The notes under the pieces are model-generated. The model searched no databases and had not been told where the DNA came from. It saw only the letters and a program-made list of their open reading frames with translations. A stretch of DNA of 10,770 nt, taken from NCBI GenBank assembly GCA_020343715.1, contig CP070808.1, forward strand, positions 35,001 to 45,770. The letters are read 5' to 3'. The position numbers and the translations under genes were made by a program. Positions 1-10,770 of this stretch are shown here, one piece after another (within the stretch, counting starts at the first letter, position 1; each line of letters opens with the position of its first letter). This DNA is from Thermoplasmata archaeon. Its GTDB lineage: Archaea > Thermoplasmatota > DTKX01 > GCA-020343715.

Positions 1-390
1 GACGAGAAGGTCGACGAGGACCACGTGGCCCGGATAGGGGAGGGCGGGATGGACCCGGCGACGATGAGGCCCATCGTCGTCATCAAGCACCCCAAGGAGG
101 AGGTTTTCTCGGTCCTGGACGGGCACCACAGGTTCCGCCTCATCAGGGACATGGGGTGCGAGACCATCCGGGCCGCGGTGGTGGACGACTACGTGGGCCT
201 GGGCTTCTTCCTCACCAAGAAGGGAGTTTTCCAGCCGACCCCGGAGTTCACCAAGTACGTCAGGGTCCCCATCAAGCGTTTCGTCTTTTCGATGACCGAG
301 TTCCTGAGGGACCCATTGGCCCTGCTGAAGGACGGTCCGGACCGTTCTACGGAGACCCAACCCACGGGTGAACCCGACACCACGGAGTGA
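1..390 (+). CDS. ParB/sulfiredoxin-fold protein, 3' part (5' end outside window)
   Basis: The frame is open from base 1 (GAC GAG AAG GTC) to TGA at 388-390, so at least 129 codons are present. A GTG lies at 25, but coding continues upstream of it, so the true start is probably outside the window. The diagnostic motif is VLDGHHRFRLIRDMG (codons about 37-51), the DG-x-HR box of the ParB N-terminal / sulfiredoxin fold, preceded by a beta strand (RPIVVIKHP). The C-terminal tail is polar and acidic (ETQPTGEPDTTE) and probably disordered. In this fold the DGxHR box contributes to nucleotide or phosphate binding. Known members include ParB CTPases, nucleases, sulfiredoxin and archaeal free-serine kinase (SerK). 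With the N-terminus missing I cannot choose among these, although a stand-alone archaeal protein is less likely to be a true chromosome-partition ParB. It converges on the ABC permease gene, with 21 nt between stops. Confidence 0.75.
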   Translation, partial: DEKVDEDHVARIGEGGMDPATMRPIVVIKHPKEEVFSVLDGHHRFRLIRDMGCETIRAAVVDDYVGLGFFLTKKGVFQPTPEFTKYVRVPIKRFVFSMTEFLRDPLALLKDGPDRSTETQPTGEPDTTE

Positions 391-2365: not shown

Positions 2366-3712
2366 GTGACCCTGGACCCGGAGCACGATGTCATCGTGGT
2401 GGGCGCCAACGTCGCAGGTGTCTCCACCGCAAGGGAGCTGGCCCTGCGTGGCCTTGACGTGGCCCTGGTGGAGAGCCAGCCGGCCCCCGACGTGGGCTCG
2501 AGGAGCTGCGGCGACGGCATCGAGGTCTTCCAGTTCAAGAAGGTGGGAATCCCCATCCCCCAGGGGGACTTCATCCTGCGGGAGGTCCCCGTGGCCTACC
2601 TCCTCTCTCCAGACCGACAGACACGGTTCCGTGGCATGTCCGCGGGCATAACGATAGACAGGTTCACGCTGAACCAGCACCTGCTGTCAGAGGCCATCGA
2701 CTCGGGAGTTCAGCTCTACGGGTCCACCGACGCCACGGCCCCGGTCGTCAAGGACGGGAGGGTGACGGGGATCCGCACCCGGGACCGTGCGTCCAGGGAC
2801 ACAGGCACTGTGGTCGCCCCTGTCACAGTGGACGCCAGCGGATGGAGGGGGAAGCTCCGTCGGTCGGTCCCTCCCGATTGGCCCATTGCCGAGGTGGTCC
2901 CCGACCATGAGACGGCCATCGCGTACAGGGAGGAGAGGCGAAGGCCCGAACCCGTCGAGGACCTCCACGTGGAGGCGACCTTCGACTTCGACATCGCGCC
3001 CAAGGGCCTCTACTGGTACGCCGACCGGACCGACGTCCTGGTCAACGTGGGCGTGGGCATGCAGCGGGTGCCGGGCGTCCCGGGTCCGAAGGCCGTCATC
3101 CGAGACAGGGTGCTTCCCCTGTACCCTGACCTGAAGGGGACCGCGCTCATCCGGAGCGGGGGCGGCGTCATCCCGAACAGGCGTGCCCTGGACTGTCCCG
3201 TGGCCGACGGCATGGTCGCCGTGGGCGACGCCGCGTGCCAGGTAAACCCCCTTTCGGGCTCGGGCATTGGCTCGTCCATGTTCGCAGCGGCGCTCATCGG
3301 GAGGACGGTCGCCATTGCCCTGGAGGCGTCGAGGAGCCCGAGGACGGAGGACCTCTTCCCTTACGCCCACGCCTATCAGACGGCGTACGGTACTGACCAG
3401 GCGGCCTACCACGTGCTCAGGGCGTCCCTCCAGGGATTGACCAACGCCCAGCTCAACCGCCTCATGGGCTCTGGCACCATCTCCGAGGACGACCTGGTGG
3501 AGGCGGCCCGCACTGGCGAGATGAACCTGTCGTTCACCGCAAAGGTCAAGGCGGCCTCGAAGCTCATGGGCGAGCCGCGTCTAATCCGGTCCCTCGCCCG
3601 TTTGCACAAGAACATGCAGGAGGCCCGTCATCTCTACTCGGAGTATCCCGAGTCGGTGGAGGGGCTGGACGCGTGGAGACGGAGGGCGGCCCAGCTCTTC
3701 GAAGGGATCTGA
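2366..3712 (+). CDS. Geranylgeranyl reductase family FAD-dependent oxidoreductase
   Basis: This 448-residue flavoprotein belongs to the geranylgeranyl reductase family, which in archaea saturates the isoprenoid chains of ether membrane lipids (for example digeranylgeranylglycerophospholipid to archaeol) at the membrane surface. The N-terminal FAD-binding strand-turn-helix is DVIVVGANVAG (8-18), followed by the acidic residue ending strand 2 (VE, 35-36). Cys48 in SRSCGDG corresponds to the family's conserved cysteine motif. YWYADRTDVLVNVGVG (216-231) matches the Y-x-W...NVG substrate-side motif. The second FAD motif is MVAVGDAACQVNPLSGSGIG, with Asp288 contacting the ribityl/phosphate. Length and motif order are normal for the family. 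No other lipid-biosynthesis gene is nearby, and the substrate could be another polyprenyl compound such as a quinone side chain. It starts with GTG, diverges from the ABC operon, and converges on the cadherin-repeat gene with a 6-nt gap. Confidence 0.9.
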   Translation: MTLDPEHDVIVVGANVAGVSTARELALRGLDVALVESQPAPDVGSRSCGDGIEVFQFKKVGIPIPQGDFILREVPVAYLLSPDRQTRFRGMSAGITIDRFTLNQHLLSEAIDSGVQLYGSTDATAPVVKDGRVTGIRTRDRASRDTGTVVAPVTVDASGWRGKLRRSVPPDWPIAEVVPDHETAIAYREERRRPEPVEDLHVEATFDFDIAPKGLYWYADRTDVLVNVGVGMQRVPGVPGPKAVIRDRVLPLYPDLKGTALIRSGGGVIPNRRALDCPVADGMVAVGDAACQVNPLSGSGIGSSMFAAALIGRTVAIALEASRSPRTEDLFPYAHAYQTAYGTDQAAYHVLRASLQGLTNAQLNRLMGSGTISEDDLVEAARTGEMNLSFTAKVKAASKLMGEPRLIRSLARLHKNMQEARHLYSEYPESVEGLDAWRRRAAQLFEGI

Positions 3713-3718
3713 GCCCCG

Positions 3719-6691
3719 TCATCTGTGGAGAGGAGCCACGGCCTCCACGTCGTCGACCGCCTCCCAGGCGTCCTCCTCCTCGGGCTCGGGCTCCTCCGGC
3801 CTTCCCCCGATCCTCCCGGTCAGGACTAGGAACAGGACCAGCAGGGCAACTGCGAGGGCGATGCCTCCCGCCCACAGGACGGTCGACGCGCCGCCCTCCT
3901 CGGGGGCGGCCTCCACCTCGATGACGACCTCATCGAAGCCCACGCCCTCTCCGTCCGAGGCCTCCACCCTGATCCTGATTTTCCCCGAGGGGGGATCGAC
4001 CCAGTGGCTGCTGGGGCCCGTCGTGATCTTCTCCCAACGGGAGTCCGGGGTGTCGTTGTAACGCCATAGCCAGGTGAAGGTGATGTGGTCCTCCTCCTCG
4101 TCCAGGCCGATGGAGCTTAGGAACACCTCCTTGCCCCCGCCCACCACCTGCCCCTCCCTCGGTGTCTTTATGTCCACCGTGGGAGGGTCGTTGACGGTGA
4201 TGACGGTCAGGTTGAAGGCGAGGACGGATGAGCCCCCCCTGCTGTCGGTGGCCGTGAGGGTGACCAGGTGTTCCCCACCGTGCCTCTCCTGGGGAGTCCA
4301 GACGATGGTCCCCCCCTCGGCGGGCACGTGGAACGGTGCGCCCCTTGCACCGACCTGGACGGTGTCGCCCACGTCGTCGTCGCTGAGGACGATCGTGATG
4401 GACCACTCCACGTCCTCGACGGCCTCCTGGTCCGGTATGTGCCGTATGTTGGGCGGGTGGTTGATGCCCATCACCGTCAGCAGGAACGAGACGGTGTCGG
4501 AGGCTCCATAGGCGTCGGTGACGGTGACGGTCATCTCGTGCTCTCCCACGTGGTCGTGCAAGGCCACGTAGGTGAACGAACCGTCATGGGCCACCTGGAA
4601 TAGGAGCGGGTCGACCTCCCACGTCAGTTCCTCCCCAGGGTCGACGGCCAGGTCCGGGTCCGTCACATGGATGCTGTGGGACAGGAGACCGTCCTCGAAG
4701 GTCACGATGTCGGCGACGTGGGACAGTACGGGCGGGTCGTTCACGTTGGCGATGACGATCAGGAACTCGGCAGAGTCCGTCGCTCCATCGGTATCCTCCA
4801 CCACCATGGTCAACGTGTGCTCCCCCACGTTCCCGTTCCCTGGTGACCGCCACACCAGCTCGCCCAGCACATCGTTCAACTCCAGCAGCTCGAGGATGAG
4901 GGGGTCCCCTTGCAGCGACCACCTGAGCAGGTCGCCATGGATGATGTCCGGGTCATCTACCTCGAAGGTGTGGGCCAGGTACACGCCCTGCATCCCGTGG
5001 ATTTCGCCGGGGTTCTCGATCCGGGGTTCGTCGTTGACGTTCGCGATGGTAAGCTCCAACCAGAACTGGGCCTGGCCCCCCATGTCGTCGGACACGGTGA
5101 TGATGACCCGGTGGAGCCCGACCTGCTCGTTGTTCGGAGTGAAGGATATGACCCCGGTTACGGGATCGATGTCGAAGGCGCTGGTGTCCAGGGAGTAGTT
5201 GATCGGATCTCCGTCCACGTCCATGGCCACCATGTTCAGGTAGAACGGGACGCCCTGGGTCCCGTTCATCCGGCCGGGGGACGTACTCCTGGGCGCGTCG
5301 TTGACTGCGATGACGTCCAGGACAATCGTCGGGCTCGTGGTGTTCTCCCCCCACGGGTCGGTGGCGTTGACCTGGAAGGTGGCCCTGCCGTTCCAGTCCG
5401 CCTCCCTCACGTAGAAGGACAGGAAGTGGTCCGACTCGACCAACGCCTCGATGGCCGTCGTCGAGGAGTTGACCACCGCGTACGCGAGGATGTCCGCGGA
5501 CCAGTCATCGTCGGTGTACATACCAAGGTCCACAAGGCCTGGGGCGTCGATGTCCTCGTACATGGTAAGGTCCGGCAGATCTCCCCATGTGGGCGCCAGG
5601 TTGACCACGGGCTCGTACACCACGCTCAGGTTGGACAGCCGGACGCGGGCGGCGGTGACGTTCTCGAAGGAGACGACTATGGGAACCGTGATGTTGCTGG
5701 GCAGGACCGCCTCGGCGTCCACGGCCGCCTGGAGGGCTTCTTTCAGGCCGGATCCGGCGCCAAGCCGGACCAACCCCGAGAACAGTCCCTCCCTGCTCCA
5801 CAGCTCGCCAGAGGGGGCGATGGTGAGGTTCACGTCCTCGGCCTCCCTCCACACCCCCTCCATGGTGACGTTGAGGCGGACGTAATCGGTGTGGACCTCC
5901 CCGTCCCCGACGAAGGGATTTGTACCCCCTGAGAGCTCGGATGGTTTTCCAACGACCAGGACGAAGACGTTCCGGTTCACGTCTATGAAGTCCCTGTGTG
6001 GGCCCGACCATGCCTTCCTCAGCCTCCTCTCCTCCCCTAAGTTCGTGGCGGCGTAGGTGTCCACGGGAACCCAAGAGGTGGTGGAGTTCTTCCACATGTA
6101 CATCGCCGCGCCGCCCACGGTGGGCGAGGCGGTGCATTGCCCGAACCCCTCCCACATCACGTCCATGGCCACGTCCGTGCCCGGTGGCATGGCGAACCGG
6201 AACAGGTGGAACGGATGGCGACCCGTGGTCCCCGTCCCTGTGGTAGTGGCCAGGTGGTCATCGTCGGAGGTGCCTGCGGAATCGTACTGTGTCCTGACCA
6301 GGTCGTTGCCCGAGGGAGAGTACGGGTCCCAGAAGGGATACGTGGGGGGGTGGTTACCCTGGACCCATCCCTCCCACGCACGATGGGGCGATGCGGTGTT
6401 CCACCTTTCGAAGTCCAGGGTCCGATCGTCGTCCTCGTGGCCCCCCAACCCCTCCACGTCCATGCGCGCTGACGTGATGTTGGCCCCTCGGGGGATCTCT
6501 ATGCCGGCGGTGGCGTTGATCCCGTCCTCCTTGAACGTCAGGGTAACGTTGGCCTCCCCACCGGCGAAGGTGGTGATGTCGACGGGCCCCGCCGACGCCT
6601 CGGTGGCGGTCCAGGGTGCCGCTAGGAACCCCAGCAGGACCACTGACAATAGTGCCCAAGACCTATACGCAGACATAGCCCCAGCGCGCAT
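3719..6691 (-). CDS. Large type I surface protein with cadherin/Ig-like repeats
   Basis: This 990-residue exported protein has a signal peptide at about 1-34 (hydrophobic core WALLSVVLLGFLAAPW, then an ASA-type cleavage site). An N-terminal region at about 36-360 is not recognised. A chain of beta-sandwich repeats follows, marked by NLAP/NDAP/NDEP/NDPP/NHPP/NDPP at 364, 464, 553, 651, 744 and 834, i.e. 89-100 residues apart. Inside the repeats are cadherin- or dystroglycan-like phrases (DPVTGVISFTPN, VGLHRVIITVSDDMGG) and Asp-rich DVDGD/DPD clusters that often bind calcium. A single transmembrane helix at about 937-958 leads to a 32-residue acidic cytoplasmic tail (EEPEPEEEDAWEAVDDVEAV). Many N-x-S/T sequons suggest glycosylation. 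A role in the cell envelope, adhesion or ligand binding is inferred; no catalytic motif is seen. The start could be ATG 6691 (GGGGGA 8 nt upstream) or ATG 6676; both keep the signal peptide. It is divergent from the membrane regulator gene. Confidence 0.88.
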   Translation of the reverse strand: MRAGAMSAYRSWALLSVVLLGFLAAPWTATEASAGPVDITTFAGGEANVTLTFKEDGINATAGIEIPRGANITSARMDVEGLGGHEDDDRTLDFERWNTASPHRAWEGWVQGNHPPTYPFWDPYSPSGNDLVRTQYDSAGTSDDDHLATTTGTGTTGRHPFHLFRFAMPPGTDVAMDVMWEGFGQCTASPTVGGAAMYMWKNSTTSWVPVDTYAATNLGEERRLRKAWSGPHRDFIDVNRNVFVLVVGKPSELSGGTNPFVGDGEVHTDYVRLNVTMEGVWREAEDVNLTIAPSGELWSREGLFSGLVRLGAGSGLKEALQAAVDAEAVLPSNITVPIVVSFENVTAARVRLSNLSVVYEPVVNLAPTWGDLPDLTMYEDIDAPGLVDLGMYTDDDWSADILAYAVVNSSTTAIEALVESDHFLSFYVREADWNGRATFQVNATDPWGENTTSPTIVLDVIAVNDAPRSTSPGRMNGTQGVPFYLNMVAMDVDGDPINYSLDTSAFDIDPVTGVISFTPNNEQVGLHRVIITVSDDMGGQAQFWLELTIANVNDEPRIENPGEIHGMQGVYLAHTFEVDDPDIIHGDLLRWSLQGDPLILELLELNDVLGELVWRSPGNGNVGEHTLTMVVEDTDGATDSAEFLIVIANVNDPPVLSHVADIVTFEDGLLSHSIHVTDPDLAVDPGEELTWEVDPLLFQVAHDGSFTYVALHDHVGEHEMTVTVTDAYGASDTVSFLLTVMGINHPPNIRHIPDQEAVEDVEWSITIVLSDDDVGDTVQVGARGAPFHVPAEGGTIVWTPQERHGGEHLVTLTATDSRGGSSVLAFNLTVITVNDPPTVDIKTPREGQVVGGGKEVFLSSIGLDEEEDHITFTWLWRYNDTPDSRWEKITTGPSSHWVDPPSGKIRIRVEASDGEGVGFDEVVIEVEAAPEEGGASTVLWAGGIALAVALLVLFLVLTGRIGGRPEEPEPEEEDAWEAVDDVEAVAPLHR

Positions 6692-6735: not shown

Positions 6736-6780
6736 TCTATTCGGTCCACCCCGGCCATCGTGTCGAAAACTTCTCCACTC

Positions 6781-6790
6781 TTTATATATA
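6781..6790 (+). promoter_or_regulatory. TATA box, near-symmetric, candidate for both divergent genes
   Basis: TTTATATATA fits the archaeal TTTAWATA consensus on the plus strand. Read on the minus strand the same site is CTTATATATAAA, one mismatch from the consensus. It is the clearest TATA-like element in the window. With transcription starting about 25 nt downstream, the rightward transcript would begin near 6812 and have a leader of about 195 nt. The leftward transcript would begin near 6757 with a leader of about 65 nt. Neither flank is a strong BRE, so I cannot assign one direction. Confidence 0.55.
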
Positions 6791-6902
6791 AGGTGCACGA
6801 CTAAGATAGGAAGCGTCCTAGCGACGTGTACACCGAGTGATACAATGCCTGGTTGGGAGGATGTACACCCGTGTGAGCCCCCGAACGGGTCCCCCGAGAC
6901 CC

Positions 6903-6924
6903 CCTCCCAGCGTATGCTGGGAGG
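6903..6924 (+). repeat. Perfect inverted repeat / RNA hairpin in the leader
   Basis: CCTCCCAGC (6903-6911) and GCTGGGAGG (6916-6924) are exact reverse complements separated by GTAT, giving a 9-bp GC-rich stem with a tetraloop. There is no T-run after it on the plus strand, so it is unlikely to be an intrinsic terminator. It could be a leader structure of the rightward mRNA or, as DNA, a palindromic protein-binding site. Confidence 0.6.
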
Positions 6925-7006: not shown

Positions 7007-10000
7007 ATGGACCGCCTGTTGAACCCCCGGACAGTCGCACTGGTCGCCCTCGCCATGCTCGTGACGCTGGTAGCCGTGGCCATGTCCTCCGCCGCGGACG
7101 AGACCTTCGACGACTGGACGGTCAGGACCACCGTCGCCATGAACGACACCGTCATCACGGTGTACGGGGAGCTGACCATCGAGCAGACGGGCAACCTCAA
7201 CCTGTACAACTGCGAGCTGCGGTTCATGGGCGGCGACGATACCAACAGGAGGATCCACCTGGCGGGCGGCACCCTCGTGCTCGAGGACACCATCGTCACC
7301 TCCGTGAACGGCGGCCTTATGACGGTGGAGGGGAACCTGGAGGTCAGGGGCACCTCAAGCATCGAGCACATGGACGTGTGGGTAGGCACCCGCGGCTCCA
7401 TCGCCATGAGGGGCGCCTCCCTCACCCTCGCGGGCACGTACACCACTCCCCGCGACTTCGACCCCGTGGACATGAAGGTGGCTGGCTCGGCCACCATCGT
7501 CGACTCCACCGTCACCCTGGAGGTCGCGTTCATATCCTCCACGGGCACCGTGACCCTCACCCGGTCCACCATCGACTCGTCCTTCGACTTCGGCTACCAG
7601 TACGACCCCGCGAAGGAGCACCTGGGCTTCGACGGTGGGACCGTCTCCCTAGTGGACAGCACCTTCACCTCCCTCGACGGCGGCATCAGGTCCCTGGCTG
7701 ACCTGTCTGCCCGGGACAGCATCTTCAACGACGCGGACCTGAAGCTCCACACCCCCGACTGGCTGGCAGGGCTGGAGGCATGGGTCGACGGCTGTACCTT
7801 CACCAACTCGGACCTTCTGATCATCGTTGATATGGCCCAGCGGGTCACCAAGTCCCTGGATGTACTGGTCGAGGATGTGGAATTCACCGGCGGCGTCATC
7901 GAGATCAACCTCCTGGAGGCCTACTCCGGCTCCATCGTGATAGACGGGGCCACCTTATCGGGCTATTCCGGCTACGGCGTGACGGTCCTGGCCAACGGCG
8001 TGGACGGAGACCTGGTCCTCGAGGACCTGGACCTGGACGGCCCGTGGGGCGTCCAGCTGGGCTGGGACTATTCGGGCATCCGCCTGGTCAACTCGACCAT
8101 CAAGGCCCAGCAGACGGCCCTGGACATCCTGGGCCAGTACCCGTCGGTCCCCGCCTTCGTAGAGGGTGTCACCCTCAGCGGCAACATGGGCCTGAAGGCC
8201 AAGAACACCGTGGTCAAGGTCGAGGACTGCGACCTGACGATGGCCGCCGTCCCCGTGAGGGGAGAGGGCGGTGCCGCCGTGAGCCTCACCAACTGCATGG
8301 TGGACGATGTGACGATGGTCCTGAACGTCGAACCTGGCGAGAGGGACGCATCGATCAAGGTGGACCGGCAGCTGGAGATAGACGAGGTCCGGTGGCTCAT
8401 CGGTGACCCCATCGAGGATGGTACCGTCCTGTTCTACGTCAAGTCCGGCGACACCCTCTTGCCCACGGTGAAGCAGTGGAGGATAGGTTCCCCCGACCTT
8501 CCCCTCATACGGATCCTCGAGTGGACGATGGACGACGAGGGCGTGGGGGTCCGCACCGTCTTCGACGACGTCGAACCGTCCCTCTACATCGACGGGAACA
8601 CCTTCATCCCGGACGCGGGCTTCGCCCTCGACCCCTGGGACGAGGGCCCATTCGACCTGGTGTTCAAGGACGATGTGAAACCCTGGATCGCAGTGTCCGG
8701 AGACGTTCCGACCGTGATCAACGACCCCGAGTGGATCCTGTACGGGACCGTGGGCGACGCCGGGACGGGCATCGAGGGAGTCTCGTGGGCCCTCTACAAC
8801 TCCACCGGCGAGCTGGTGGACTCCGGCGAGGTCGACTACCTCTCAGGCAGCCGTTGGCAGACGACGATATTCGTCACCGGCGACTTCCAGGTGGTGCACC
8901 TGTTCCCCATGGACAGGTCAGGCAACGAGGAGCTCCTCCCCCTCCAGGGCGTGGACGTGGCCGTTCCCCCTCCCACGCTGACCGTCGTCAGGCCTGAGAA
9001 CAGGCTCTTGACGAACGTGGAGCTCATCACCGTCTCCGGTACGGCCGATTTCTACGCCAGCGAGGTCCAGATACAGGTTCTGGGCCACACCGAAGTGGTC
9101 TCAGTGCCCGTGGTGTCCGGCAGGTACTCCAAGATATTCCGCCTTCCCCAGGAGGGCCTCAACGACCTGATAATCTCCAGCCATGACCCCTACGGTGGCT
9201 TCGACGAGAAGCGTTTGTCGGTCTACCTTGACACCATCCCGCCGGCTATCATCCTCGACGACCTGTCCGATGATTCGATGAACTACCTGAACAACCCCTC
9301 GCTGGTGATCTCGGGCATGACGGACGACCCGAGGGCCGTCATCACCGTGCTCGGACAGGAGGTGGGCCTGGCCGACATGGCCTTCGCCACCACCGTGTCC
9401 CTGGCGAACGGGGCCCAGACGATCAAGGTGAAGGCCAGGGACGAGGTGGGCAACGAGAACCTGGTCAATCTGCAGGTCACCCTCGACACCCTACCCCCCC
9501 TGATCCGGTTGGTGAGCCCAGAGACCAGCCCATTCTGGTCCACCGAGTTCGAGGTGGAGGTGGTGCTGGAGGCCGACGAGGAGCTGGCATCGGCCTCCGT
9601 GAACGGCGAGGAGGTTGACGTGGATGACGGGCTCATCACGTACACCGCGAGGCTCGGGAGCGGCCCCTACGAGGTGAACGTGAGGGCGACCGACCTGGCA
9701 GGCAACTGGGCCGAGAGGCAGGTGGTGCTCAGGCTGGACGACGTACCACCCGCCTTGAACTTCGTCTCCCCCAGGCAAGGCCAGGTGGTGAACGCCACCG
9801 CCGTCCCGCTGGTCGTGGTGACCAGCGAGCCCGGTTGCAGCCTCTTCATAGACGTGGACGGCACTCTCGTGCGCGTCGACACCCACGAGCACGACATCGG
9901 CCGCTTGACGGGCATGATGTACCTGCCCCCAGGAGAGGGCGAGAGGACGGTGAGGATGGTCCTTGTTGACAGGGCCGGGAACACCGTTGCCGAGGACCTC

Positions 10001-10770
10001 TCCATCGACATAGACACGATAATCCCGAGCCTCAGCATCCGCGACATATACGACGGCAAGAAGGTCACCACCGAGCCCTGGAGGATCAAGGGCTTCACCG
10101 AGCCAGGCGTCAAGGTGGTGTGGGTGAACGACAGGATGGCGACCCTCTCTCCCAACGGGGAGTTCACCATCACCCTCGAGCTGGACGAGGGATGGCACAT
10201 CATAACCTTCGTGGTCATCGACCGGGCCGGGAACACCAGGCACGAGAGCTTCAACATCGAGGCCCTGGGCGAGCCCAGCATCGACCCGCCCGTCACTGCC
10301 TTGGCGGCTGGAACGATCCTTGCGACCCTGGGCGCCCTGGCCGTCACCACCGAGGCGGGCAGGTGGAGCCTGATGGCCGTCTTCATACCCCTCTATACCA
10401 AGTTGCGCAAGGACAAGATCCTCGACCAGCGCACCCGTGGCCTCATCGAGGGTTACATCACCGCGAACCCAGGCTGCAACTACACCATCATACGGGACAA
10501 CCTGAACCTGGCGGATGGGACCCTCACGTACCACCTCCAGGTGCTGGAGCGGGAGGGCTTCGTCTACTCCATCCGGGAGGGCCTGTTCCGGTGCTTCTAC
10601 CCCCAGGGCGTCCCCCCGCCACGGCGGGGCAAGCTCCACCTCAGCGACACCCAGGCCGACATCGTCAGGATAGTCAAGCGCATCCCCGGCATCACTGTGG
10701 GCGAGGTCGCCACCGCGATGAACCGGCGTCCCAACGTGATCTCCTACCACCTGAAGCTCCTCAAGGAGGG
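7007..10770 (+). CDS. Membrane-spanning regulator: beta-helix and Ig-like ectodomain with cytoplasmic tandem winged helices (3' end outside window)
   Basis: The frame is open from ATG 7007 (GGGAG ribosome site 8 nt upstream) to the window end, giving 1,254 full codons and no stop. A signal peptide or anchor lies at 9-25 (VALVALAMLVTLVAVAM). Residues about 45-440 are successive short strands of a right-handed parallel beta-helix; rungs such as VDSTVTL (165), LTRSTID (184), LVDSTFT (215), ARDSIFN (235), VDGCTFT (260) and LTNCMVD (427) recur. After a linker domain (about 450-555) come six Ig-like repeats of 84-98 residues, opening with D-x-x-PP-type motifs near 556, 654, 742, 827, 911 and 1001. 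A transmembrane helix at about 1096-1115 and a hydrophobic stretch to 1130 lead into PLYTKLRKDKIL. Then come two winged helices: 1141-1200 (recognition helix DGTLTYHLQVLEREG) and 1213 onward (NVISYHLKLLKEG), the latter cut by the edge. The DNA-binding part resembles COG3398 archaeal two-HTH regulators. Predicted role: an extracellular sensor coupled directly to transcription. The ligand is unknown. Confidence 0.88.
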   Translation, partial: MDRLLNPRTVALVALAMLVTLVAVAMSSAADETFDDWTVRTTVAMNDTVITVYGELTIEQTGNLNLYNCELRFMGGDDTNRRIHLAGGTLVLEDTIVTSVNGGLMTVEGNLEVRGTSSIEHMDVWVGTRGSIAMRGASLTLAGTYTTPRDFDPVDMKVAGSATIVDSTVTLEVAFISSTGTVTLTRSTIDSSFDFGYQYDPAKEHLGFDGGTVSLVDSTFTSLDGGIRSLADLSARDSIFNDADLKLHTPDWLAGLEAWVDGCTFTNSDLLIIVDMAQRVTKSLDVLVEDVEFTGGVIEINLLEAYSGSIVIDGATLSGYSGYGVTVLANGVDGDLVLEDLDLDGPWGVQLGWDYSGIRLVNSTIKAQQTALDILGQYPSVPAFVEGVTLSGNMGLKAKNTVVKVEDCDLTMAAVPVRGEGGAAVSLTNCMVDDVTMVLNVEPGERDASIKVDRQLEIDEVRWLIGDPIEDGTVLFYVKSGDTLLPTVKQWRIGSPDLPLIRILEWTMDDEGVGVRTVFDDVEPSLYIDGNTFIPDAGFALDPWDEGPFDLVFKDDVKPWIAVSGDVPTVINDPEWILYGTVGDAGTGIEGVSWALYNSTGELVDSGEVDYLSGSRWQTTIFVTGDFQVVHLFPMDRSGNEELLPLQGVDVAVPPPTLTVVRPENRLLTNVELITVSGTADFYASEVQIQVLGHTEVVSVPVVSGRYSKIFRLPQEGLNDLIISSHDPYGGFDEKRLSVYLDTIPPAIILDDLSDDSMNYLNNPSLVISGMTDDPRAVITVLGQEVGLADMAFATTVSLANGAQTIKVKARDEVGNENLVNLQVTLDTLPPLIRLVSPETSPFWSTEFEVEVVLEADEELASASVNGEEVDVDDGLITYTARLGSGPYEVNVRATDLAGNWAERQVVLRLDDVPPALNFVSPRQGQVVNATAVPLVVVTSEPGCSLFIDVDGTLVRVDTHEHDIGRLTGMMYLPPGEGERTVRMVLVDRAGNTVAEDLSIDIDTIIPSLSIRDIYDGKKVTTEPWRIKGFTEPGVKVVWVNDRMATLSPNGEFTITLELDEGWHIITFVVIDRAGNTRHESFNIEALGEPSIDPPVTALAAGTILATLGALAVTTEAGRWSLMAVFIPLYTKLRKDKILDQRTRGLIEGYITANPGCNYTIIRDNLNLADGTLTYHLQVLEREGFVYSIREGLFRCFYPQGVPPPRRGKLHLSDTQADIVRIVKRIPGITVGEVATAMNRRPNVISYHLKLLKE

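What the first reader, a model, noticed from the sequence alone, without database searches (positions are those of the whole stretch)
7007..10770. Giant one-component transmembrane transcription regulator with an extracellular beta-helix/Ig sensor
One open frame joins a signal peptide, a roughly 400-residue parallel beta-helix, six Ig-like repeats, a transmembrane helix and a tandem winged-helix region with Y-H-L recognition helices. If the topology is right, more than 1,060 residues face outside and the DNA-binding part stays tethered to the inner membrane. Two-HTH archaeal regulators (COG3398) with N-terminal membrane segments are known. I know of no characterised function for a version with an adhesin-sized ectodomain. 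It would be a way to turn contact with a polymer, surface or cell directly into transcription, with no kinase relay.
Basis: partly seen in the sequence, partly recalled or inferred. Interest (0 to 1): 0.72.

Follow-up and report, generated by a model that had tools for sequence, protein, structure and literature searches.

The report
Giant membrane-tethered archaeal gene switch
An uncultured archaeon carries a very large surface protein whose outside part looks like a polymer- or sugar-sensing rod and whose inside part looks like a DNA-binding switch, so one molecule could carry an outside signal straight to a gene; it belongs to a big family for which no studied member was found.

Summary
The frame from 7007 to the window end is one real gene: 28 relatives match its C-terminal region, 26 of them 1271-1284 aa long. 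AlphaFold2 gives a confident parallel beta-helix for the N-terminal region (pLDDT 92.7) and, for an orthologue's C-terminal region, an Ig domain, a membrane helix and two winged helices. The hydrophobic stretch after the membrane helix has only 12 uncharged residues (at most 16 in 36 relatives), so the protein is most likely single-pass with the DNA-binding part inside. Between 20 orthologues the winged helices are 91-92% identical, the beta-helix 40%. A 30-nt block at a TATA-like box upstream is kept 26 of 30 in a distant orthologue; its 22-nt core was found nowhere else in the two relatives' drafts: a candidate autoregulatory site. Five genomes of the relatives' class carry 40 large ORFs with this module and varied ectodomains, more than response-regulator matches; 305 of 389 sampled phylum genomes have the module. 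Transmembrane transcription regulators are a known kind; for this giant-ectodomain branch I found no characterised member. Ligand, DNA binding and targets are not shown.

The parts
7007..10770 (+). Open frame of the giant regulator (residues 1-1254; about 25 C-terminal residues lie outside the window)
7007..7096 (+). N-terminal hydrophobic segment, signal peptide or N-in anchor (residues 1-30)
   Evidence: sequence; relatives have one at the same place
7097..8326 (+). Right-handed parallel beta-helix ectodomain (residues about 31-440)
8327..8686 (+). Extra beta-rich part (residues about 441-560)
   Evidence: strands in the AF2 model
8687..10270 (+). Six Ig-like units (residues about 561-1088; number by own reading)
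10292..10351 (+). Membrane helix (residues 1096-1115)
10352..10426 (+). Juxtamembrane module: invariant Glu1116, basic residue, 12-residue hydrophobic stretch with PLYTKLRK, start of a long helix (residues 1116-1140)
   Evidence: Glu in 36 of 36 rows of A4; long helix 167-204 of the model
10427..10615 (+). Winged helix 1 (residues 1141-1203)
   Evidence: HTH_HVO_0163_N E 7e-9; model of L001
10628..10770 (+). Winged helix 2 (residues 1208 to end of window; last wing cut off)
6762..6791 (+). Conserved promoter block with TATA-like box, candidate site of autoregulation
   Evidence: 26 of 30 nt identical to orthologue L001, best of 200 mononucleotide shuffles 19; 22-nt core found once in G001, once in G002, 0 in G003-G005 at up to 3 mismatches
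2366..3712 (+). Geranylgeranyl reductase-type gene, upstream neighbour shared with L001 and L002
3719..6691 (-). Divergently transcribed surface protein with Ig/cadherin-like repeats and a C-terminal hydrophobic helix; not at this place in L001 and L002

Best explanation
This is a single-pass, membrane-tethered one-component transcription regulator. Supported by computation: a long ectodomain (about 1,065 residues: beta-helix, a small beta-rich part, Ig-like units) is followed by one membrane helix, a juxtamembrane module with an invariant Glu, and two winged helices in the cytoplasm. Inferred: the beta-helix at the tip binds a polymer or glycan of the cell's own surface layer or its surroundings, the Ig stalk holds it away from the membrane, and binding or tension changes the pairing of the membrane helices and of the long helix that runs from PLYTKLRK into winged helix 1. 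This switches DNA binding by the tandem winged helices, without a kinase relay and without leaving the membrane. The near-frozen DNA-binding part implies a conserved target set; its own promoter is the best candidate target.
For: Orthologues with the same architecture. Folds. Topology: after the membrane helix the longest uncharged run before winged helix 1 is 12 residues in the window, at most 13 in 30 of 36 rows and 15-16 in the other 6; mean net charge -0.4 outside and +2.2 inside, more positive inside in 30 of 36. Winged helices 91-92% identical against 40% for the beta-helix and 48% for the Ig part among 20 orthologues; dN/dS about 0.45-0.5 in the ectodomain and 0.11 in the cytoplasmic part in the closest pair. 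The same membrane-wHTH module is joined to PKD, CARDB, NEW3, Big and FG-GAP/VCBS ectodomains in relatives, as expected of interchangeable receptors. Promoter block. With the beta-helix region as query, 12 of 13 hits (the window's own among them) carry the wHTH and the 13th (P0033) looks frameshifted (the candidate list was cut by the tool). Precedent for acting from the membrane: TfoS and ChiS (passages of PMC11856585) and the TTRs of PMC10269533.
Against: No DNA binding, ligand or target was tested. AF2 gives low confidence (block means 52-64) to model residues 141-190, that is the membrane helix and the first part of the long helix, and pTM 0.35 for the C-terminal model, so the joints are unknown. 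In one of 36 relatives (L072) the stretch after the membrane helix is itself hydrophobic enough to pass for a membrane helix. Winged helix 1 has no net positive charge (6 basic, 8 acidic); winged helix 2 has (13 and 8; both counted in L001). The promoter block rests on three sequences, two of them close relatives, and may be only core promoter; no second copy, hence no regulon, was found. Beta-helices serve many roles, so a glycan ligand is a guess.
Confidence: 0.62

Rival explanations
1. Regulated proteolysis: the ectodomain is shed and an intramembrane protease cuts the membrane helix, so that the winged-helix part is released and acts as a soluble factor.
For: The membrane helix is short and rich in Gly, Ala and Thr (ALAAGTILATLGALAVTT), as some intramembrane-protease substrates are (recalled); a released factor reaches the chromosome freely.
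Against: The juxtamembrane module, with its Glu, is kept in 36 of 36 rows with different ectodomains, which suits a transduction element at least as well. No protease gene was seen among the ORFs scanned beside it in the window, L001, L002 and L091; not every ORF there was scanned.
Confidence: 0.2
2. Chromosome-envelope tether or structural protein: the winged helices anchor DNA, or dock proteins, at the membrane and do not regulate transcription.
For: Winged helices can be structural; Foldseek and VIA also list ESCRT-II and TFIIIC or RNA polymerase III winged-helix chains.
Against: Several paralogues with different winged helices per genome, nearly frozen recognition helices within one orthologue group, and best VIA matches of winged helix 2 to MarR/ArsR regulators.
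Confidence: 0.1
3. Adhesin or S-layer component with a vestigial or mis-assembled HTH tail.
For: The ectodomain is adhesin-like.
Against: The HTH part is the most conserved part of the protein in 20 orthologues, and 26 of 28 orthologues have full length.
Confidence: 0.02

Closest known systems
Transmembrane transcription regulators (TTRs; ToxR, CadC, TcpP), PMC10269533
   Same: One protein with a DNA-binding domain and a membrane region; more than half are single-pass; reported in bacteria and archaea
   Different: In ToxR and CadC the DNA-binding domain is N-terminal and the sensor small (recalled); here a giant ectodomain is N-terminal and a tandem wHTH is C-terminal
TfoS of Vibrio (passages of PMC11856585 and PMC7564644)
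   Same: Membrane-bound regulator with a periplasmic sensor domain related to hybrid two-component proteins; needed for the response to a polymer (chitin); binds its promoter directly
   Different: AraC-family output; periplasmic rather than open to the environment; propeller-type sensor (recalled), not beta-helix plus Ig; sequence relation not tested
ArnR and ArnR1 of Sulfolobus acidocaldarius (passages of PMC6396743)
   Same: Archaeal membrane-bound one-component regulators with promoter binding studied in vitro
   Different: N-terminal HTH, HAMP-like and sensing domains, two C-terminal membrane domains; no large ectodomain
Large TM-wHTH proteins of Thermoplasmata (database names such as 'winged helix-turn-helix transcriptional regulator')
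   Same: Related membrane-juxtamembrane-tandem wHTH module at the C-terminus
   Different: Other ectodomains (FG-GAP/VCBS, CARDB, NEW3); no characterised member found in my searches

Membership tests
Transmembrane transcription regulator (TTR, as defined in PMC10269533) | A predicted DNA-binding domain in the same protein | tested here: met
   PF24266 and HTH_20 above cut-off; fold in orthologue L001
Transmembrane transcription regulator (TTR, as defined in PMC10269533) | At least one predicted membrane region | tested here: met
   residues 1096-1115
Transmembrane transcription regulator (TTR, as defined in PMC10269533) | Regulates transcription from the membrane | not testable with these tools
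   needs an experiment
Pfam HTH_HVO_0163_N (PF24266) | Score above the curated cut-off | tested here: met
   36 bits against 31
COG3398 (two-HTH archaeal regulators) | Match to the COG profile | not testable with these tools
   no COG library; the term was found in 0 papers
ArnR type | N-terminal HTH with C-terminal membrane domains | tested here: not met
   HTH is C-terminal to the membrane helix
Two-component or hybrid receptor | HisKA, HATPase_c or receiver domain | tested here: not met
   none among the 13 Pfam families at E up to 0.1
Polysaccharide lyase, epimerase or tailspike beta-helix enzymes | Beta-helix fold | tested here: met
Polysaccharide lyase, epimerase or tailspike beta-helix enzymes | Catalytic residues and glycan binding | not tested
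   no superposition of active sites was made

The most novel reading that the evidence does not exclude
In these archaea, which have few two-component systems, a multigene family of giant one-component receptors took over environmental sensing. A fixed membrane-Glu-helix-tandem wHTH chassis is joined to swappable ectodomains (beta-helix, PKD, CARDB, propeller), and this member reads a surface polymer and regulates its own promoter and a conserved target set directly from the membrane.
Probability: 0.35. Interest if true: 0.8.

Novelty: new variant of a known kind. Interest (0 to 1): 0.57.

Why it matters
Complete Thermoplasmata genomes hold very few two-component proteins (3 histidine kinases and 4 response regulators in 11 genomes, Table 1 of PMC5847659), so how such archaea sense the outside is open. 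In the five genomes held of the class of the window's relatives, ORFs of at least 480 aa with this wHTH module (5, 3, 14, 6 and 12) outnumber response-regulator matches (3, 2, 10, 0 and 4) in each genome. A family with a fixed output chassis and swappable sensors makes the question testable: one DNA-binding assay per chassis, one ligand screen per ectodomain, and chimeras between them. That these genomes belong to Thermoplasmatota is inferred from names of relatives.

Tried and rejected
Chimera or frameshift: rejected. Two-helix hairpin that would put the HTH outside: thought unlikely. My first measure skipped up to four residues and cut runs at the first charge, so that it read at most 13; the recount gives 12 for the window, at most 13 in 30 of 36 rows and 15-16 in six, and one row (L072) with a hydrophobicity that would pass as a membrane helix. 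Search for a wider regulon: the 22-nt block with up to 3 mismatches gave only the two orthologues' own promoters in 5 genomes, and its 12-nt core was found in 7 of 94 held loci, all copies of the same two promoters; so no second target was found. A scan of viral contigs with an 18-nt pattern gave 32 stretches that I take as chance and did not follow. Orthologues in viral contigs: 74 pattern matches, none confirmed. Rfam: no match at gathering threshold. tRNA: none. Papers: nine searches listed no characterised archaeal regulator with an ectodomain of this kind; only open-licence papers are held and few of the listed ones were opened, so this is no proof of absence. Neighbourhood: only the window, L001, L002 and L091 could be compared. 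The Foldseek list for the beta-helix model has low TM-scores (0.11-0.38); VIA was used for the fold statement. The Foldseek list for the C-terminal model is led by Ig-type adhesins and enzymes, since the Ig unit fills it; VIA hardly tested the membrane part and winged helix 1.
Full report
Observation. The frame 7007-10770 is open to the end of the window. A search with residues 1060-1254 found 30 proteins at E up to 0.001 among 2356 candidates: the window's own protein (1255 aa, on a 2.28-Mb contig), 28 orthologues (26 of them 1271-1284 aa, two of 927 and 1071 aa) and one distant relative with another ectodomain. An alignment of 22 of these rows, the window included, runs over the whole length for the orthologues. 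The missing C-terminus is about 25 residues, the last wing. So the protein is real and conserved, and in the window whole but for its last residues.

Topology. Behind the membrane helix lies a second hydrophobic stretch (WSLMAVFIPLYT). Its longest uncharged run is 12 residues in the window, at most 13 in 30 of 36 aligned modules and 15-16 in six; one of the 36 (L072) reaches the hydrophobicity of a membrane helix there. The side towards the wHTH is the more positive in 30 of 36. With an N-terminal signal or anchor this puts about 1,065 residues outside and the wHTH part inside. A Glu at the inner end of the helix and an Arg at the start of winged helix 1 are invariant in 36 of 36 rows, although the ectodomains differ. 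I read the Glu as part of the transduction joint (inference).

Evolution. Among 20 orthologues the mean pairwise identity is 40% in the beta-helix, 48% in the Ig part, 56% in the membrane segment, 92% in winged helix 1 and 91% in winged helix 2. In the closest pair dN/dS is about 0.45 in the N-terminal half, about 0.5 in the Ig part and 0.11 in the cytoplasmic part (the last rests on very few changes). The DNA-reading part is nearly frozen while the sensor drifts. The beta-helix region used as a query found 13 proteins at E up to 0.001 (7996 candidates scored, list cut by the tool); 12, the window's own among them, carry the wHTH, and the 13th, P0033, ends in an Arg/His-rich tail that looks like a frameshift.

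Family. In the five genomes held of the class of L001 and L002, the HVO_0163 wHTH occurs in 40 ORFs of at least 480 aa (5, 3, 14, 6, 12; my count from the rows) and in further short ones. I fetched 40 regions; 41 ORFs matched the C-terminal query, 39 of them with a hydrophobic 19-mer of KD 1.6 or more just before the wHTH (L082 has 1.55, L092 none) and 38 with one within 120 residues of the first start codon (not L091, which is cut by a contig end, L072 with 1.44, and L092). Of 38 full proteins scanned, 38 match PF24266 at E up to 0.001; their ectodomains include PKD (8), NEW3 (8), Big_9 (5), CARDB (4) and others. Of 389 sampled genomes of the phylum 305 have the module at E up to 1e-10, with about eight candidates scored per genome; of the 150 best rows printed, 89 lie in ORFs of at least 600 aa and 38 of at least 1000 aa, up to 2847. 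A search with a paralogue's module found 110 large proteins, its own among them, many with FG-GAP/VCBS or CARDB ectodomains; some source names give Thermoplasmata, Thermoplasmatota, Euryarchaeota or Methanomassiliicoccales archaea and no function beyond regulator, membrane-protein or repeat-protein labels. Response-regulator matches in the same five genomes number 3, 2, 10, 0 and 4; HATPase_c matches number 6, 6, 12, 3 and 5, a family that also holds gyrase-type proteins (the latter recalled). These are drafts, so absences are soft. A published census gives 3 histidine kinases and 4 response regulators in 11 complete Thermoplasmata genomes (PMC5847659, section read).

Surroundings. A geranylgeranyl reductase-type gene lies upstream on the same strand in the window (2366-3712), L001 and L002 (61-62% identity). 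An ABC ATPase is shared by the window and L002 (72% over 188 residues). Exonuclease VII large subunit lies downstream on the opposite strand in L001 and L091. In the window a divergent surface-protein gene stands between the reductase and the regulator. This may be plain synteny. In the promoter, 30 nt at window 6762-6791 are 26 of 30 identical to L001, against at most 19 in 200 mononucleotide shuffles. The 22-nt core, written from these three promoters, has no second copy in G001 or G002 and none in G003-G005 at up to 3 mismatches; the reversed-pattern control gave 0. It touches a TATA-like box, so core promoter is a rival to an operator. Nearly fixed winged helices and a nearly fixed site at their own gene fit autoregulation; this is a hypothesis.

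Comparison. The census of transmembrane transcription regulators (PMC10269533) found 1,384 in archaea (367 of 404 species with at least one, on average 4 per genome); 56% of all TTRs, bacteria and archaea together, are single-pass; its table of characterised cases has one from archaea, ArnR. ArnR has an N-terminal HTH and two C-terminal membrane domains (passages of PMC6396743). TfoS of Vibrio is the nearest functional analogue that I know, a membrane regulator with a periplasmic sensor domain needed for the chitin response (passages of PMC11856585, PMC7564644). So the mode of action has precedent; for the archaeal giant-ectodomain branch with C-terminal tandem wHTH I found none in nine paper searches of an open-licence library.

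Verdict. Supported by computation: architecture, conservation, expansion, topology. Inferred: ligand class, in-place signalling, autoregulation.

Noticed in passing
window 6903-6924: Perfect 9-bp hairpin with a 4-nt loop in the leader between promoter block and start codon; the block lies 245 nt before the start codon here and 104 nt in L001.
   Followed up: partly
window 3719-6691 (-): 990-aa surface protein with Ig/cadherin-like repeats and a C-terminal hydrophobic helix, divergent from the regulator; not at this place in L001 and L002.
   Followed up: partly
window 2366-3712 (+), L001:26-1402, L002:1792-3237: Geranylgeranyl reductase-type gene is the shared upstream neighbour of the regulator, 61-62% identical: possible link to membrane lipids or mere synteny.
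   Followed up: partly
L001:5809-7176 (-), L091:2406-3773 (-): Exonuclease VII large subunit, which I know mainly from bacteria (recalled), downstream of the regulator in two archaeal drafts.
   Followed up: no
G004 (2.7 Mb draft): No response-regulator match at E up to 0.001, but six ORFs of at least 480 aa with the wHTH module.
   Followed up: partly
P0033 (928 aa): Orthologue copy that ends in an Arg/His-rich tail, apparently a frameshift in that contig.
   Followed up: no
window 1-390 (+): Partial ORF at the window start with a weak ParB N-terminal match (E 0.014, below the cut-off).
   Followed up: no
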